A stretch of 64,000 nt of DNA, from positions 62,001-126,000 of the IMG/VR virus record IMGVR_UViG_3300019124_000001. One strand, given 5' to 3'. Positions within the stretch are counted from its first letter, which is position 1; every line of letters starts with the position of its first letter. The notes under the pieces were generated by a model, which saw only the letters and a program-made list of their open reading frames with translations, made no database searches and was not told the origin of the DNA. Of the stretch, positions 2,220 to 40,574 are shown piece by piece. Both the position numbers and the translations under genes were made by a program. This DNA is from a virus.

Positions 2220-3197
2220 ATGGTAAACTTGGTTATTCCGTTTAACAATAAAATGAAAGAGCGTTTCTTGGGTGATATGAATTTGAGCGAAGAGACAAAG
2301 TACTACTACAATCGACTCTTCCTCAAATCTAAATTCGCTGAAGAAACGCTGAACAAAGACCTTGCATACTTCAATGTAATCGAATTGGAAACGGTTTTAT
2401 ACAGCTTGAAATCCGCAACACTGAATGCTTGCATCAAAGAAGCAGGAATCATTAAAACATACATCAATTGGGCACTCGAAAAAGGATTGCGACAAGATGG
2501 AGTCAATCCCGTACTTATGCTAAAAGAAGATGACTACAGGAAGTTCATACCTGACAAGAACATCAACTTCACCTACAACGATGTGTTTGACGTAATGATC
2601 CCTCCCGTATATAATGCTAGTGACGCCATCTGCATCCTCCTTCCGTTCGAGGGCTTGTCACTGGCAGAGATGGTCAATCTGACTAAATACGATGTGGATT
2701 GGAACAATAGAGTCTTGATAGTTCAAAAAGATCGTAATGACGAAAGAACCAAACGAGTGGTACAGGTAGAGCAGAAAACTATAGACTTGATCGCCAAGAG
2801 CATCGAAGAGAGCGAGTATTACAAGAAAAACGGATATTATCGCTTCAATCCAACCCCACGAGTGAAACCTACTCTTGAGCTTGCAAGTAATGACTTCATC
2901 GTTAGAGCGGCACAAACCTACGGCGATAACGAAAATGCTCCTGCTGACACTCAAACTGTAACAAGAAGGCTCAAAATGCTAAAAGAAGAATTAGATCAAC
3001 CAGAATTGAAGTTTCAAAATCTTTCCCGTTCCGGTTTGTTATGGTACGCAAAGAAACTGATGGATGAACGTGAAGGGAGACTGGACACGGAAGCGTACAA
3101 GATGATTGGCAAAAAGTTTGATGTTGAACCGACATATGCGCAACTCAGGCGTACAGTGAATGAAGAAGAAGTGAACAAGCTCTACAATAGGAGGTAA
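2220..3197 (+). CDS. Tyrosine-recombinase-like protein, probable MrpR/YopR-type phage repressor
   Basis: 325 residues, the length I recall for SPbeta MrpR (YopR), the master repressor with a tyrosine-recombinase fold. Residues 1-110 look like a core-binding domain; the rest is catalytic-domain-like, but key positions are changed. GLSLAEMVNL replaces the usual GLRxSE, so the first catalytic Arg is lost. NLSRSGLLWYA replaces HxLRHTFA, so the His is lost while the second Arg remains. PTYAQL keeps a Tyr at the nucleophile position. It is therefore likely a DNA-binding regulator rather than an integrase. ATG 2220 is the only in-frame start near the ribosome binding site, but AAGGGGG is better placed for an overlapping 10-codon frame starting at 2213. 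It is followed at once by a small HTH gene and the peptide-receptor module. Family assignment is from length, fold pattern and context. Confidence 0.7.
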   Translation: MVNLVIPFNNKMKERFLGDMNLSEETKYYYNRLFLKSKFAEETLNKDLAYFNVIELETVLYSLKSATLNACIKEAGIIKTYINWALEKGLRQDGVNPVLMLKEDDYRKFIPDKNINFTYNDVFDVMIPPVYNASDAICILLPFEGLSLAEMVNLTKYDVDWNNRVLIVQKDRNDERTKRVVQVEQKTIDLIAKSIEESEYYKKNGYYRFNPTPRVKPTLELASNDFIVRAAQTYGDNENAPADTQTVTRRLKMLKEELDQPELKFQNLSRSGLLWYAKKLMDEREGRLDTEAYKMIGKKFDVEPTYAQLRRTVNEEEVNKLYNRR

Positions 3198-3201
3198 CAA
3201 C

Positions 3202-3549
3202 ATGGCACGTACTGTCATTCATGATCAAGACGTAAGGATCAAAAGGGATGTATTTGAAATGGAGTTTGACAAGCAAGGGTTTCGCACAGCGAAATCCTTT
3301 CTTGAATATTTTATTGAGGATGTTGGTTTGAAAATAGGTTGGAAGACTCTTTACCAAATGATTTACGAAAAGCCTAACAAGGTAGCATGGAAACTCCATT
3401 ACGCTATGTTGTTAGCAGATTATTTGAATCTAAAGGTGGAGGCGCTATTCGAGTTTTATGATGTAGATATCGAAGCGGAAGCGCAAGCGAGAGAAGACAA
3501 AAACGCTAAGATACGAGAGTCGAAAGAACGCAATAGTAATAAAAACTAA
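3202..3549 (+). CDS. Small Cro/XRE-like helix-turn-helix protein
   Basis: 115 residues from ATG 3202 behind AGGAGG, four bases after the previous stop, so it is co-transcribed with the MrpR-like gene. Residues about 45-85 (IGWKTLYQMIYEKPNK... LLADYLNLKVEALFEF) have the spacing of a Cro/C1-type HTH domain. The C-terminal 30 residues are charged and low in complexity. Probably a DNA-binding partner in the lysogeny switch. A perfect terminator hairpin follows. Confidence 0.7.
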   Translation: MARTVIHDQDVRIKRDVFEMEFDKQGFRTAKSFLEYFIEDVGLKIGWKTLYQMIYEKPNKVAWKLHYAMLLADYLNLKVEALFEFYDVDIEAEAQAREDKNAKIRESKERNSNKN

Positions 3550-3583
3550 AACAAGTACCCTAAAATAAGGGTACTTGTTTTAG
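3546..3583 (+). terminator. Strong terminator after the repressor operon
   Basis: CTAAAACAAGTACCCT (3546-3561) is perfectly complementary to AGGGTACTTGTTTTAG (3568-3583). The TTTT lies within the 3' arm. Confidence 0.8.
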
Positions 3584-3592
3584 TTTAGCTGG

Positions 3593-3622
3593 TTGACATA
3601 CATAGTTGTTATATGTTATAAT
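3593..3622 (+). promoter_or_regulatory. Promoter of the peptide-receptor gene, with inverted repeated element (copy 2)
   Basis: TTGACA (3593-3598), 18-base spacer, TATAAT (3617-3622), with TATGT just before the -10. The spacer starts with TACATAGTTGTT (3599-3610), the exact reverse complement of the element core AACAACTATGTA. This is the only inverted copy seen in the window. Confidence 0.8.
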
Positions 3623-3661
3623 ATTGACCGAGGACATTATTACAGTAAAGGGGTGTATAAT

Positions 3662-3682
3662 ATGAAGGGGTGTAAAAGATGA
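3662..3682 (+). CDS. Possible 6-codon leader peptide (MKGCKR)
   Basis: ATG 3662 is preceded by AAAGGGGTGTATAAT and ends with a TGA that overlaps the receptor start as ATGA. The leader is an imperfect duplication (aaggggtgtataatATG, then aaggggtgtaaaagATG), so translational coupling is plausible. Confidence 0.35.
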   Translation: MKGCKR

Positions 3683-4704
3683 TCGACAAGGAAAGTTACA
3701 TAGAACGCATTAAGGAGATTATGGACGAACAGGGCTTTACGTCCGTTGAAGCGTTTTCTGAGGTCTGTGGGGTAAACAAAGAATACATTAGGCAAATCCT
3801 GAAAGGCTCTCGTGACATCGGAGAGCTTGAAGCGAAAATAGCCTATGGATTAGGGGTGACTGTTCGTAGATTGCGAATGGAAGACACTCGCGAACAAATA
3901 ATAAAGGCTGAAAATGATTTACTGTTGCCTGAAGTCAACATTCAAGAACTTATTAAATCTGTAAATGTCCTCTACAAAAAAGCAATTGGCATTACAGAGA
4001 AAGCAGACATGCTCTATCTTTTATCCAGTGTGTACAAACATGGTAGACTTTGGAACGAGTGTGTCCAAACGTGCGAAGATGCTCTGCAACTACTGATAAG
4101 ACAGAAGAAGGCAAAGAGTATGAGCAAGATAGGGAAAAGACCTGATGGAGATCGTATCCGTAAGGTAATTTCTCGTTATCTATTCGCACTCAAATCTTCG
4201 CAACGTCTACATGAATATGTTGCCCTAATCGAAAAGTATGAGCAATATTTTGATGTAGATGCTAGAGCGAAGTCTGAGCTTTTGTATAGGAAAGGTAACG
4301 CAAAGTTTCGCCTGAACTACTGGAAGGAAGCGGAGGATTCGTATAACAGCGCACTCGAAGGATTTCGTGTTTTAAATGACAAAGAGTATGAATTTCGTAT
4401 CCTAGTCAATATCGCAATGATCTATGCGGAACGTGAGTTTTATGTAACAGCGATTGATATTTTAAACGAAGCGGAAAAGTTGTTGCAATATGAAACAGCA
4501 TTTGATTCTTTAATGAATTATCAATACGTTGTTGCAAAAATTCTATTTGTAAATGGATCAGATTTAGAAACAATCGAAAAAAGACTTGACAACGCTATGG
4601 GCAGATATGGTAAACTTGAAGGGAAGCCTATGTTGATTTACCATATATTAAAACAAGGCGTTGATCTGGCACTCAAAAGGCAGTTGATCCAAGCCGTCTT
4701 TTGA
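3679..4704 (+). CDS. HTH-TPR peptide-responsive regulator (RRNPP family, AimR-like)
   Basis: 341 residues. Residues 1-65 form an XRE-type HTH: SVEAFSEVCGVNKEYIRQIL, then a helix and GLGVTVRRL. Residues about 85-335 are alpha-helical with TPR-like pairs, for example LLYRKGNAKFRLNYWKEAEDSYNSAL near 205-230 and LVNIAMIYAEREFYVTAIDIL near 245. This is the layout of PlcR, NprR and AimR, regulators that bind a re-imported peptide in the TPR domain. The next gene is a small secreted propeptide, as in aimR-aimP pairs. Its promoter carries an inverted copy of the genome-wide element. ATG 3679 has AAGGGG upstream. The SPbeta AimR itself is about 386 residues, so this is a shorter relative or an independent RRNPP protein. 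Confidence 0.8.
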   Translation: MIDKESYIERIKEIMDEQGFTSVEAFSEVCGVNKEYIRQILKGSRDIGELEAKIAYGLGVTVRRLRMEDTREQIIKAENDLLLPEVNIQELIKSVNVLYKKAIGITEKADMLYLLSSVYKHGRLWNECVQTCEDALQLLIRQKKAKSMSKIGKRPDGDRIRKVISRYLFALKSSQRLHEYVALIEKYEQYFDVDARAKSELLYRKGNAKFRLNYWKEAEDSYNSALEGFRVLNDKEYEFRILVNIAMIYAEREFYVTAIDILNEAEKLLQYETAFDSLMNYQYVVAKILFVNGSDLETIEKRLDNAMGRYGKLEGKPMLIYHILKQGVDLALKRQLIQAVF

Positions 4705-4739
4705 TGTAACAGCCAACAGAAAGGAGAACAGTGAACATT

Positions 4740-4907
4740 ATGAAAAACATCAAGAACAAAATCTTTCTTGCAGGAATCATTCTTGCGATTGGAGCTACCG
4801 TAGGTTGCTCTAAAAATGCAATGCCGTTTGACCCCTACGAGCCTGACGGCAAAGAGGTGTCGGTGTTTGATCCCTACGAGCCAGACCCCATTGTGTTTAA
4901 CGGTTAA
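4740..4907 (+). CDS. Secreted propeptide with two copies of a heptapeptide (arbitrium-like signal)
   Basis: 55 residues from ATG 4740; GTG 4731 is in frame and equally possible with AAGGAG upstream. A basic head (MKNIKNK) precedes a hydrophobic stretch (IFLAGIILAIGATVGC) typical of a Sec signal, with a weak lipobox-like ATVGC. The mature part contains FDPYEPD twice: residues 30-36, followed by G, and 43-49, followed by P. Phr, NprX and AimP precursors have the same plan, a signal sequence plus a short active peptide, sometimes repeated. It lies 35 bases after the receptor gene and before a strong terminator, so the two are one transcript. I infer that FDPYEPD, or a trimmed part, is the ligand of the upstream receptor. 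The alternative is a small lipoprotein without signalling function. Confidence 0.75.
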   Translation: MKNIKNKIFLAGIILAIGATVGCSKNAMPFDPYEPDGKEVSVFDPYEPDPIVFNG

Positions 4908-4920
4908 ATATCGTTAAAAA

Positions 4921-4960
4921 AATGCCGAGGAATGTGTCGAAACATTCCTCGGCATTTTTC
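4921..4960 (+). terminator. Strong terminator closing the receptor-peptide unit
   Basis: AATGCCGAGGAATGT (4921-4935) pairs perfectly with ACATTCCTCGGCATT (4942-4956), followed by TTTTTC. It starts 13 bases after the propeptide stop. Confidence 0.9.
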
Positions 4961-5188
4961 TTCACAATCTATCAAAATTTTTGCGATTTTTGACTTGACG
5001 ATCAATTTTCGCAATTTCCTCTCCGAAACTATAGAAAAAAGTCATAATAGATGGTATTATGAAATTACCACATGAAAGACGAACGCTAGTTCGGTAACAG
5101 AGATAGACAATAGTTGCCAACATTCTACAGAACAGTTTTCGTCAAACACACAACTTCATAGTACAAACTTCCAAGGAGAGTGCTTTTC
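4961..5188 (+). other. Non-coding gap behind the signalling module; possible aimX-like locus
   Basis: No convincing gene. It holds a TTGACG box (4995-5000) without a good -10, a TATAGA at 5030-5035, the dyad at 5043-5061, and CGAACgctaGTTCG (5080-5093) that could fold in RNA. In SPbeta-type arbitrium loci a short RNA or ORF (aimX) occupies this place and is controlled by AimR. No element copy is present. Confidence 0.4.
5043..5061. promoter_or_regulatory. 7-5-7 dyad, candidate receptor binding site
   Basis: CATAATA-gatgg-TATTATG is a perfect dyad with a 5-base centre. Its right arm contains TATTAT, which could be a -10 box. HTH dimers of the RRNPP type bind such inverted half-sites, so this is the best operator candidate for the regulator at 3679-4704. 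Confidence 0.4.
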
Positions 5189-5572
5189 ATGTTAATGGGT
5201 GATCTGAAATTGTCTCAAACGAACCGTCGAATCCTTTCCTATCTTGTACAGAACGAACATGAGGAAGCCGAGTTTAGGGAATGGCATCTTGGTTTTAACC
5301 GATCTATTCTCTTTGATATTATGGCTTTCCGCGCTGTAAAGGTCGAGAGGGCGTTGGCGAAGTTGTCACTCTCTGATTTTGTACAAGCCTTTGAAAAAGG
5401 CAACAGAGAAGAAAAAAGGGAAGTTTTGCAACAGGTCTTTCAACAATGGGTAACAGATACTGACTTGGACGATCTGACAGAGCGAATTACGAACGGTCTG
5501 ACGCTCGAAGCGCTCTATGAAGAACGCCGCCTGAAGCCAAGTGACTTCCTCCACTCCCTACTTAGGGGGTAG
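5189..5572 (+). CDS. Hypothetical protein after the signalling module
   Basis: 127 residues from ATG 5189, ten bases behind AAGGAG; an upstream in-frame GTG at 5180 lies too close. Mostly alpha-helical and charged, with SQTNRRILSYLVQNEHEEAEF at the start and a C-terminus LKPSDFLHSLLRG. No family recognised. Position suggests it is the first gene controlled by the communication module. Confidence 0.6.
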   Translation: MLMGDLKLSQTNRRILSYLVQNEHEEAEFREWHLGFNRSILFDIMAFRAVKVERALAKLSLSDFVQAFEKGNREEKREVLQQVFQQWVTDTDLDDLTERITNGLTLEALYEERRLKPSDFLHSLLRG

Positions 5573-38288: not shown

Positions 38289-38313
38289 TACAAACAACAA
38301 CTATGTATGGTGG
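38289..38313 (+). promoter_or_regulatory. Repeated element (copy 19) fused to a ribosome binding site
   Basis: CTACAAAC, core AACAACTATGTA (38296-38307), then TGGTGGTGA, the likely ribosome binding site of the first kinase-like gene. No -10. Confidence 0.7.
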
Positions 38314-38321
38314 TGAATGAT

Positions 38322-39053
38322 TTGCGTATCGGTGGACGCGGAATGCGAGTAGTTAACGATATGCCCTTTAATGACATCTTAAAAATCACGCAGATGGCAG
38401 TTAATAGGTTTAAGCATTGCGGATTGCAACGTCTTGGCGGTGGAGAGTATGGCAACGTATACCTCTACATTGATACCAACGGCAAGAAGTATGCGATTAA
38501 GGTGTGGAATGATAGGCATATCAATCATGACGCAGACATTGATTTTCTGCTGAAACTTCAGGGTAGCGAATATTTTCCAAAGGTCTACATGTATAAACGT
38601 AAGGGTTTTCTGGTCATGGAATTTTTCGAAGGAAGAACACTGAAAGAGATTTATGATCCCATTAGCAGAGAAATTGCAGATAATACTGGTAAAACTCGAA
38701 TCAAAAATATTCACAATGGAATCCAACACATCGAAAAGGCATTTCGATTTGCTATGTCGCGTGGACTCTTGCCATTCGACACTCACGGCAATAACATTGT
38801 TGCAACGCCAGATGGCAGACTGAGATTTATAGATGTTGGCTTGTTTGAAGAACTTAAAGTAAAATACAAAATTCTTCGCTGGAAAAACTCTGTAAGGCTC
38901 AGAAGCAACAAAGACTTCATTCGTCAGGTTAGTCGCGATCTTAATTACTACAACGAATTCAACAAAGCTAAAAGTGCTTTTGAGGAAGCGAAGAAAGCTA
39001 TTGTTGAGGAAGCAACGCAAGCTATCATTAAGGAACGACAGAGGATATGTTAA
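38322..39053 (+). CDS. Protein kinase-like protein, tandem copy 1
   Basis: 243 residues from TTG 38322; the equivalent position in copy 2 is an ATG. Kinase landmarks: Gly-rich loop LGGGEYGNVYLYI (38-50), YAIKVW with Lys60, hinge FLVMEFFEGRTL (96-107), catalytic loop FDTHGNNIV (152-160) and IDVG (170-173) at the DFG position. The loop has DxHxxN rather than HRDxxxxN, as in small phage or atypical kinases, so activity is likely but not certain. Followed by two paralogues, each behind its own element. Confidence 0.75.
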   Translation: MRIGGRGMRVVNDMPFNDILKITQMAVNRFKHCGLQRLGGGEYGNVYLYIDTNGKKYAIKVWNDRHINHDADIDFLLKLQGSEYFPKVYMYKRKGFLVMEFFEGRTLKEIYDPISREIADNTGKTRIKNIHNGIQHIEKAFRFAMSRGLLPFDTHGNNIVATPDGRLRFIDVGLFEELKVKYKILRWKNSVRLRSNKDFIRQVSRDLNYYNEFNKAKSAFEEAKKAIVEEATQAIIKERQRIC

Positions 39054-39059
39054 CTTTCT

Positions 39060-39083
39060 ACAAACAATAACTATGTATGGCGG
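39060..39083 (+). promoter_or_regulatory. Repeated element (copy 20) fused to a ribosome binding site
   Basis: TACAAAC, core AATAACTATGTA (39066-39077), then TGGCGGTGA. The element was duplicated together with the kinase gene. Confidence 0.7.
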
Positions 39084-39091
39084 TGAACTTA

Positions 39092-39811
39092 ATGAGAATC
39101 GGTGGACGCGGAATGAAGGTAGTTAATCATATGCCATTTAAGGATATCTTGAAGATTACACAAATGGCAGTTAGTCGGTTTCGGGATTGCGGTCTGACTA
39201 GAATTGGAGGTGGGAAGTTCGGAGATGTATATCTGTATATCGACAGCAATAGTCAGAAATATGCAATCAAAGTATGGAAAGTATACTACGACAATGAAGA
39301 TCACGACATCGAAAATTTGCTTCGTCTTCAAGGTAGTAAGTATTTTCCTAAGATTTACATGTACAAGAAGAGAAGTTTTCTCGTAATGGAGTATTTTGAT
39401 GGCAGAACTTTAGCGGAAATTTTCAGCAAACATGATAGAGAGAGGGCTGACAAAATCGGCAAACCTGCAATCAAATACATTCATGATGGCAACAAGTCTA
39501 TCGAAGAAGCATTTAAGTTTGCGGTTTCTCGTGGGCTTGCACCAAACGATACTCACGGCAATAACATTATAGTTACGAAAGAAGGAGAACTAAAATTTAT
39601 AGACGTTGGCTTATTCGAGGAACTTAAAGTTAGATACCACAGATGGCACGACTATAATGGCAAGGTGGTTTATAATAACAATAAGGATCTCGTTGAAAGC
39701 ATAAAACGGGACATTACAAACTGCTTCGAGCTTGAATACGCAAAAGGCCAATATCAATCAGCGTTTAATGCATTAGTTGAACAACAAGCAAAAGAGCTAG
39801 CCTCTATTTAA
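39092..39811 (+). CDS. Protein kinase-like protein, tandem copy 2
   Basis: 239 residues from ATG 39092. Closest to copy 1 (both start M.IGGRGM.VVN.MPF.DILKIT). IGGGKFGDVYLYI loop, AIKVW Lys, FLVMEYFDGRTL, PNDTHGNNIIV catalytic loop and IDVGLFEELKV. All putative catalytic residues retained. Confidence 0.75.
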   Translation: MRIGGRGMKVVNHMPFKDILKITQMAVSRFRDCGLTRIGGGKFGDVYLYIDSNSQKYAIKVWKVYYDNEDHDIENLLRLQGSKYFPKIYMYKKRSFLVMEYFDGRTLAEIFSKHDRERADKIGKPAIKYIHDGNKSIEEAFKFAVSRGLAPNDTHGNNIIVTKEGELKFIDVGLFEELKVRYHRWHDYNGKVVYNNNKDLVESIKRDITNCFELEYAKGQYQSAFNALVEQQAKELASI

Positions 39812-39814
39812 CTA

Positions 39815-39838
39815 TCAAACAACAACTATGTATGGTAG
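39815..39838 (+). promoter_or_regulatory. Repeated element (copy 21) fused to a ribosome binding site
   Basis: ATCAAAC, core AACAACTATGTA (39821-39832), then TGGTAGGTGATAGG before TTG 39849. Confidence 0.7.
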
Positions 39839-39848
39839 GTGATAGGCA

Positions 39849-40574
39849 TTGAAACAAGATAAAGGAATGCAGATACTTGGAGACATTGATCTGATAGATG
39901 CTACTATGATCATGAAAATGGCTATCAGTCGATTTTCAGATTGTGATCTTAAATGTATTGGAGAAGGTGTCTATGGTCGCGTTCTGCTTTATGTGGGACG
40001 AGAGGGTCGGAAGTATGCCATAAAGGTATTCAAGAGCAACTATTCGATGCTCGATATGGATGACATAGACAAACTCTTGGCTTTGCAAGGTTGTGAACAC
40101 TACCCAAAAGTATTTATGTATCAACGCGGATCGTTTATGGTGACTGAATTTATTGATGGTCGCACTCTTTATGAAATTCACTGCATTCAAGAGCGCTCTT
40201 TTGCAAACAGACTTCGCAAACCAATCATAGACAAAATGGAAAATCCTATTGAACAATACAAAAATGCATACAAATATGCTTTATCTCGTGGATTCGCACC
40301 TTATGATACGCATGGTGATAACATTATGGTAACTCCGCATGGTAGACTTGTAATCGTTGATGTTGGCTGTTTTGCTAAGTTTCACCGTAAACTAATTATC
40401 CCAATGTGGGCTTCTGAAAACAAGAAGAAGTTTTCTCAATCGGAACTTCTTCAAGCTCTGAAAGCTGATAAAGGAAATTTTTGGGGATACCACAATGGTG
40501 TGGAAGCCATCAAAGAGTGCGAGATTCATTTAAAAACACACAAAACAAATGGACAGGAGTTGCAACCAGCATGA
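39849..40574 (+). CDS. Protein kinase-like protein, tandem copy 3
   Basis: 241 residues from TTG 39849. More diverged: IGEGVYGRVLLYV loop, YAIKVF Lys, FMVTEFIDGRTL, PYDTHGDNIMV catalytic loop and VDVG. Its N-terminus lacks the IGGRGM head of copies 1 and 2. Stop overlaps the next ATG. Confidence 0.75.
   Translation: MKQDKGMQILGDIDLIDATMIMKMAISRFSDCDLKCIGEGVYGRVLLYVGREGRKYAIKVFKSNYSMLDMDDIDKLLALQGCEHYPKVFMYQRGSFMVTEFIDGRTLYEIHCIQERSFANRLRKPIIDKMENPIEQYKNAYKYALSRGFAPYDTHGDNIMVTPHGRLVIVDVGCFAKFHRKLIIPMWASENKKKFSQSELLQALKADKGNFWGYHNGVEAIKECEIHLKTHKTNGQELQPA

What the first reader, a model, noticed from the sequence alone, without database searches (positions are those of the whole stretch)
3593..4960. 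Arbitrium-like communication module with a duplicated heptapeptide
Seen: an HTH-TPR regulator (3679-4704) is followed 35 bases later by a 55-residue secreted propeptide whose mature part carries FDPYEPD twice, and then by a strong terminator. Known: RRNPP receptors (PlcR, NprR, AimR) sit next to their signal precursors, and AimR/AimP decides lysis or lysogeny in SPbeta-like phages. Inferred: this phage uses an acidic, Pro-rich heptapeptide or a fragment of it. Published AimP signals, as I recall, are hexapeptides at the extreme C-terminus and appear once. Two copies followed by different residues (G and P) and an acidic net charge would make this a distinct signal class.
Basis: partly seen in the sequence, partly recalled or inferred. 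Interest (0 to 1): 0.88.

Follow-up and report, generated by a model that had tools for sequence, protein, structure and literature searches.

The report
Phage peptide-signal cassette beside its repressor
A large SPbeta-related phage carries a two-gene unit (a putative peptide-sensing regulator and a small exported protein repeating the same seven amino acids twice) beside a relative of the SPbeta master repressor and under its likely DNA switch, which suggests phage-to-phage signalling through a receptor that is not recognisably the known AimR.

Summary
An HTH-TPR regulator (3679-4704) and a 55-residue exported small protein (4740-4907) with two FDPYEPD copies form a two-gene unit with its own promoter and strong terminators. 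The gene upstream (2220-3197) is a full-length homologue of MrpR/YopR, the SPbeta master repressor. The genome carries 29 copies of an element matching SPBRE, the MrpR operator, and one lies inside the regulator's promoter; in SPbeta, MrpR represses aimR through SPBRE. In sister phages the flanking genes are adjacent, so the pair is an accessory insertion in the repressor block. The receptor has no detectable similarity to AimR, and its RRNPP assignment rests on sub-threshold HTH and TPR matches plus gene arrangement; predicted structures show only a generic TPR fold. Duplicated pheromones are already published, so duplication does not make a new class. The precursor has a lipobox, known for some mobile-element pheromone precursors, so a lipoprotein or a different released peptide remains possible. 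Verdict: new variant of a known kind, interesting, mechanism inferred.

The parts
2220..3197 (+). MrpR/YopR homologue (inactive tyrosine-recombinase-type repressor)
   Evidence: Pfam MrpR_N_CB E 1.9e-18; PHROG 5830 E 1.2e-66; tblastn to SPBc2 YopR 1e-14, phi3T 1e-20, KKP_3916 1e-33 over 96-99% of length; the catalytic-Arg stretch of tyrosine recombinases is not conserved in the alignment (read by eye)
3202..3549 (+). 115-aa conserved gene following mrpR
   Evidence: orthologous to the gene directly after the MrpR homologue in BcoS-136, PJN02/FADO and KKP_3916 (blastp 1e-7 to 1e-8, hhalign probability 97%)
3543..3586 (.). terminator hairpin separating the mrpR operon from the cassette
   Evidence: 19-nt perfect arms, -27.4 kcal/mol, z -8.2
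3593..3622 (+). promoter TTGACA-18-TATAAT with TG before the -10
   Evidence: 12 of 12 consensus matches, best in the region
3597..3612 (-). copy of the phage-wide SPBRE-like operator, inside the promoter
   Evidence: 1 mismatch to ACAACAACTATGTATG; 29 copies in the 163,787-bp genome, 0 in the reversed-pattern control; motif matches SPBRE
3679..4704 (+). HTH-TPR regulator, putative peptide receptor
   Evidence: TPR_12 E 2.6e-6, HTH_3 E 0.0032, both below gathering cut-off; all-helical models
4740..4907 (+). 55-aa exported small protein, putative signal precursor (alternative start GTG 4731)
   Evidence: K-rich N-terminus, hydrophobic core (mean hydropathy 2.41), lipobox-like ATVG|C23
4827..4847 (+). 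FDPYEPD copy 1
4866..4886 (+). FDPYEPD copy 2, followed by C-terminal PIVFNG
4918..4959 (.). strong terminator closing the two-gene unit
   Evidence: 21-nt arms, 95% complementary; -28.7 kcal/mol, z -8.6
5180..5572 (+). conserved gene 3 of the mrpR block, next to the cassette
   Evidence: blastp 2.8e-6 to the third gene of BcoS-136, which there lies directly after gene 2

Best explanation
The two genes are an RRNPP-type peptide-signalling cassette that works like arbitrium but does not use a recognisable AimR. Proposed sequence: the MrpR-like repressor keeps the cassette silent in lysogens through the SPBRE-like operator in its promoter (operator and repressor homology shown; binding inferred). 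On infection or induction, regulator and precursor are made together (shared promoter and terminator shown). The precursor is exported by Sec, cut by host extracellular proteases into short peptides, most likely FDPYEPD or a part of it (two per precursor), re-imported by the host oligopeptide permease and bound by the TPR groove of the regulator, which changes DNA binding by its HTH and shifts the balance towards or away from lysogeny, probably by acting on neighbouring genes such as ORF 5180-5572 or on the repressor circuit (all inferred). My estimates: peptide signalling of RRNPP type about 0.7; linked to lysis-lysogeny about 0.55; FDPYEPD-derived ligand about 0.5.
For: Pair fits published RRNPP detection limits (receptor 250-500 aa, precursor 10-100 aa, gap -60 to 400 bp; PMC10075063): here 341 aa, 55 aa, 35 bp. 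Self-contained unit: perfect promoter, strong terminators on both sides. Neighbouring MrpR homologue. Operator: 29 copies, 24 intergenic although about 90% of the genome is coding; its matrix aligns with SPBRE derived from SPBc2 at the same strand and offset, score 12.77 against a column-shuffled null of 7.65 +/- 1.38, 0 of 1000; one copy lies in the regulator promoter. MrpR binds SPBRE in the aimR promoter and represses it in SPbeta (PMC10516654). YopP and YopQ homologues elsewhere in the genome. Insertion between genes 2 and 3 of the conserved mrpR block. Heptapeptide core conserved while its flanks are unlike. Duplicated and SEC/SPII-type precursors are documented in RRNPP systems of mobile elements (PMC9765709).
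Against: HTH and TPR matches are below Pfam cut-offs. No homologue of the pair was found, so no co-variation of receptor and peptide can be tested. Structure models are low confidence (pLDDT 53.5 and 67.8) and match TPR proteins in general (LGN, kinesin light chain, RapI; PlcR at rank 8 for the full-length model), none at E <= 0.001. The precursor could be a lipoprotein. No aimX equivalent and no binding site for the regulator were identified. FDPYEPD is not at the extreme C-terminus.
Confidence: 0.6

Rival explanations
1. The small gene encodes a stable surface lipopeptide or lipoprotein (for example superinfection exclusion or immunity) co-expressed with an ordinary HTH-TPR regulator; there is no signalling.
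For: Lipobox pattern IILAIGATVGC at residues 13-23. Phage regulatory regions can carry lipoproteins (SPbeta yonS next to the repressor yonR).
Against: Only about 32 residues would follow the Cys, with no recognised domain. A repeated short motif next to a TPR partner is the usual anatomy of a pheromone precursor. 211 of 2,734 RRNPP precursors are predicted SEC/SPII, enriched in mobile elements (PMC9765709).
Confidence: 0.17
2. It is a peptide-signalling pair, but the ligand is another part of the precursor: the C-terminal PIVFNG (typical position of arbitrium and AloP signals), or a hydrophobic fragment of the signal sequence such as AIGATVG, as for enterococcal sex pheromones released from lipoprotein signal peptides.
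For: Most RRNPP signals are C-terminal (PMC9765709); the lipobox predicts release of a signal peptide ending in LAIGATVG (the enterococcal precedent is from my own knowledge).
Against: The repeated, synonymously diverged FDPYEPD core indicates selection on that core rather than on the unlike tails.
Confidence: 0.25
3. It is a peptide-signalling pair that manipulates the host (sporulation, competence, defence), like Rap-Phr of phi3T, rather than deciding lysis or lysogeny.
For: Phages carry such second systems (PMC10075063; PMC11343458).
Against: Position inside the mrpR block and control by the repressor's operator; no Rap, Spo0E or AbrB homologue was recognised among the neighbours examined. 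The regulator has an N-terminal HTH-like region, unlike Rap.
Confidence: 0.2
4. A true but extremely diverged AimR-AimP system of SPbeta type.
For: Same circuit partners (mrpR, SPBRE, yopP, yopQ).
Against: No sequence similarity to AimR; about six helix pairs in a 341-aa protein by low-confidence model, against nine TPRs in AimR (PMC12700828); located downstream of mrpR instead of upstream of yopM-mrpR.
Confidence: 0.1

Closest known systems
Arbitrium AimR-AimP of SPbeta/phi3T
   Same: Receptor gene followed by an exported small precursor; phage lysogeny circuit with MrpR homologue, YopP and YopQ homologues and an SPBRE operator at the receptor promoter
   Different: No AimR sequence similarity; gene order mrpR - ORF115 - receptor - precursor; precursor has a lipobox and an internal, duplicated acidic heptapeptide; no aimX found
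PlcR-PapR / NprR-NprX class (HTH-TPR RRNPP regulators)
   Same: N-terminal HTH plus TPRs, downstream precursor; NprR- and PlcR-associated precursors can hold several copies (PMC9765709)
   Different: No detectable sequence relation; phage setting; PlcR seen only as a weak structural hit among many TPR proteins
Phr105/Rap105 and Phr3T/Rap3T of Bacillus phages
   Same: Phage precursor with duplicated signal; phi105 has two identical copies 4 residues apart (PMC11343458); here 6 residues apart
   Different: Rap receptors lack a DNA-binding HTH; the phi105 and phi3T signals are unrelated hexapeptides (ERPVGT, SRGHTS/RRGHTA) with one copy at the C-terminus
MrpR-SPBRE repressor system of SPbeta
   Same: Repressor homologue and matching genome-wide operator motif
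   Different: Operator consensus ACAAACAACAACTATGTATG against AAATACAAATAATATGTATA; binding not tested here

Membership tests
RRNPP(A) peptide-signalling systems | Receptor 250-500 aa with TPRs and (for transcription factors) N-terminal HTH | tested here: inconclusive
   341 aa; TPR_12 2.6e-6 and HTH_3 0.0032, both under Pfam cut-off but in the right places; helical TPR-like models of low confidence
RRNPP(A) peptide-signalling systems | Adjacent short precursor (10-100 aa) with an export signal, gap -60 to 400 bp | tested here: met
   55 aa, 35 bp gap, K-rich hydrophobic N-terminus with lipobox; SignalP not run
RRNPP(A) peptide-signalling systems | Mature precursor-derived peptide binds the receptor and alters its activity | not testable with these tools
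   needs synthetic peptides and purified receptor
AimR-AimP (arbitrium proper) | Receptor homologous to AimR | tested here: not met
   BLASTP E 0.11-0.15, unrelated fragments; tblastn of receptor in phages none; tblastn of phi3T AimR finds only SPbeta-group AimRs
AimR-AimP (arbitrium proper) | Signal is a hexapeptide at the extreme C-terminus | tested here: inconclusive
   the repeated motif is internal, C-terminus is PIVFNG; the real ligand is unknown
AimR-AimP (arbitrium proper) | aimX target downstream, regulated by the receptor | not tested
   no candidate established; only the 220-bp gap 4960-5179 and ORF 5180-5572 noted
MrpR repressor family (upstream gene) | MrpR core-binding domain and full-length homology to YopR | tested here: met
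   Pfam E 1.9e-18; 24-31% identity over full length in a 10-member alignment
MrpR-SPBRE regulon | Genome-wide repeated operator like SPBRE, also at the receptor promoter | tested here: met
   29 copies; matrix match 0 of 1000 shuffles; copy at 3597-3612
MrpR-SPBRE regulon | Repressor binds the element and represses the promoter | not testable with these tools
   inferred from SPbeta (PMC10516654); needs EMSA and reporter

The most novel reading that the evidence does not exclude
A second, independently recruited kind of phage lysogeny communication: a non-AimR HTH-TPR receptor with an acidic, duplicated heptapeptide signal carried on a lipoprotein-type precursor, inserted as a cassette into the MrpR/SPBRE repressor block of a large SPbeta-related phage. 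It would show that this circuit accepts different signalling modules.
Probability: 0.4. Interest if true: 0.78.

Novelty: new variant of a known kind. Interest (0 to 1): 0.62.

Why it matters
Arbitrium is known through AimR receptors. If this works as proposed, a different receptor lineage has been placed under the same repressor-operator control in a large phage, so peptide-controlled lysogeny would be a modular, repeatedly acquired trait rather than one family's invention. The conserved mrpR block and the SPBRE-like motif also give a sequence-based way to look for further non-AimR signalling cassettes in phages that AimR searches miss.

Tried and rejected
Receptor relatives: none by tblastn in phages or plasmids, nor by pattern scans of IMG/VR and GTDB. 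399 genomes of the order of Chengkuizengella, chosen because it holds a 51%-identical helicase, gave one weak TPR-only hit, 28% over 112 aa, judged generic. FDPYEPD in IMG/VR: 13 contigs, none in a small exported protein. Exact operator in IMG/VR: none. Foldseek with both models: generic TPR hits, not discriminating. Charge argument for an acidic ligand: TPR part pI 8.9 overall but 5.4 for residues 180-341, so not used. A possible dyad TGGTA-N9-TACCA near 5051 as a regulator site was seen by eye and dropped as untested. A large serine recombinase was sought in the genome and not found. 'AimR family' was rejected by sequence.

Full report
Observation. The regulator (3679-4704, 341 aa) shows an HTH at residues 11-47 and TPRs at 201-269. 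Both Pfam matches are under the curated cut-off, so the label is probable rather than certain. The small protein reads MKNIKNKIFLAGIILAIGATVGCSKNAMPFDPYEPDGKEVSVFDPYEPDPIVFNG. The two FDPYEPD copies differ by two silent bases in 21, while the six residues after each copy are unrelated. This is what one expects if the core is kept by selection, though a recent duplication of only the core would look the same.

Transcription unit. A perfect 19-bp hairpin ends the upstream operon (3543-3586), a 12-of-12 sigma-A-type promoter follows (3593-3622), then the regulator, the small gene and a terminator hairpin with 21-nt arms (4918-4959). The pair is therefore a closed two-gene unit.

Setting. The window lies in a 163,787-bp IMG/VR virus record. 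The gene before the unit is a full-length homologue of MrpR/YopR, the SPbeta master repressor. The genome also encodes YopP (19.7-20.6 kb) and YopQ-like (58.3-59.6 kb) homologues; the MrpR paper lists mrpR, yopQ, yopP and aimR among the core genes of SPbeta-like phages thought to be active in lysogeny (PMC10516654).

Operator. A 24-bp element, consensus ACAAACAACAACTATGTATGgTag, occurs 29 times in the genome. 24 copies are intergenic although about 90% of the genome is coding by a simple ORF model. I derived SPBRE from SPBc2 itself by collecting 12 sites, among them those upstream of aimR, yopM and yopV. The two matrices align on the same strand without offset, score 12.77 against 7.65 +/- 1.38 for column-shuffled controls, 0 of 1000 reaching it. 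In SPbeta, SPBRE is bound by MrpR, and MrpR represses the aimR promoter (PMC10516654). One copy here (3597-3612, reverse orientation) lies in the regulator's promoter, over the spacer. Repressor homologue, operator homologue and position together place the pair in the repressor's regulon. Binding itself is inferred.

Insertion. In phage BcoS-136 the MrpR homologue is followed directly by gene 2 and gene 3, and PJN02/FADO show the same layout. Here gene 2 (ORF 3202-3549; blastp 1e-8, hhalign 97%) and gene 3 (ORF 5180-5572; 2.8e-6 to BcoS-136) flank the cassette. The pair is thus an accessory module in an otherwise conserved lysogeny block.

Is it arbitrium? Not by descent as far as sequence shows: there is no similarity to AimR and no relative in phages, plasmids or scanned genomes. 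AlphaFold without an alignment gave low-confidence all-helical models (pLDDT 53.5; TPR part 67.8) whose Foldseek hits are TPR proteins in general, with PlcR at rank 8 and Rap lower, none at E <= 0.001. By function it resembles arbitrium: same gene-pair design, same repressor and operator.

Signal. Repeated pheromones are documented in AimR, NprR, PlcR and Rap precursors, up to six copies (PMC9765709), and phi105 Phr with two identical copies is processed by supernatant proteases (PMC11343458). The lipobox makes a lipoprotein a fair rival, but 211 of 2,734 analysed RRNPP precursors are predicted SEC/SPII and 59 of these are in mobile elements (PMC9765709), so it does not refute signalling. Candidate ligands are FDPYEPD or fragments, PIVFNG, or a signal-sequence fragment.

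Verdict. Real, well-placed two-gene unit; most likely an RRNPP-type signalling cassette working like arbitrium with a non-AimR receptor. Shown: anatomy, repressor homology, operator motif, insertion. Inferred: export, processing, binding, effect on lysogeny.

Noticed in passing
window, more than 25 sites, e.g. 6359, 20176, 25593, 38294, 55940: SPBRE-like repeated operator throughout the early region. In several cases (15920, 33689, 38294, 39064, 63475) the element overlaps the start codon of the next gene, so the repressor may act at the gene start rather than in the promoter.
   Followed up: partly
window 38307-40574: Three tandem paralogous genes with protein-kinase/ABC1-like domains, each preceded by a copy of the operator.
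   Followed up: partly
G000:C1:16676-17806 (L027, minus strand): Tubulin/FtsZ-family GTPase (Pfam Tubulin 4e-18), perhaps for plasmid-like prophage partition or intracellular organisation.
   Followed up: no
window 3648-3681: Tandem duplication of a ribosome-binding-site/start segment; a six-codon ORF (MKGCKR) overlaps the regulator's ATG by its stop, suggesting translational coupling.
   Followed up: no
G000:C1:19637-20680 and 151689-152666: Two further tyrosine recombinases, one YopP-like, one between tail genes as yomM is in SPbeta; no large serine recombinase found.
   Followed up: partly
L037 (phage BcoS-136): This MrpR-bearing sister phage has its own repeated element AAAAATAATGATATAAT (up to 8 copies of its core in 50 kb), possibly its own repressor operator.
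   Followed up: no
L034 (G001 contig 8, Chengkuizengella): A bacterial genome contig carries an MrpR homologue (31% identity) near the contig end; the same genome has a 51%-identical phage helicase, suggesting a related prophage.
   Followed up: no
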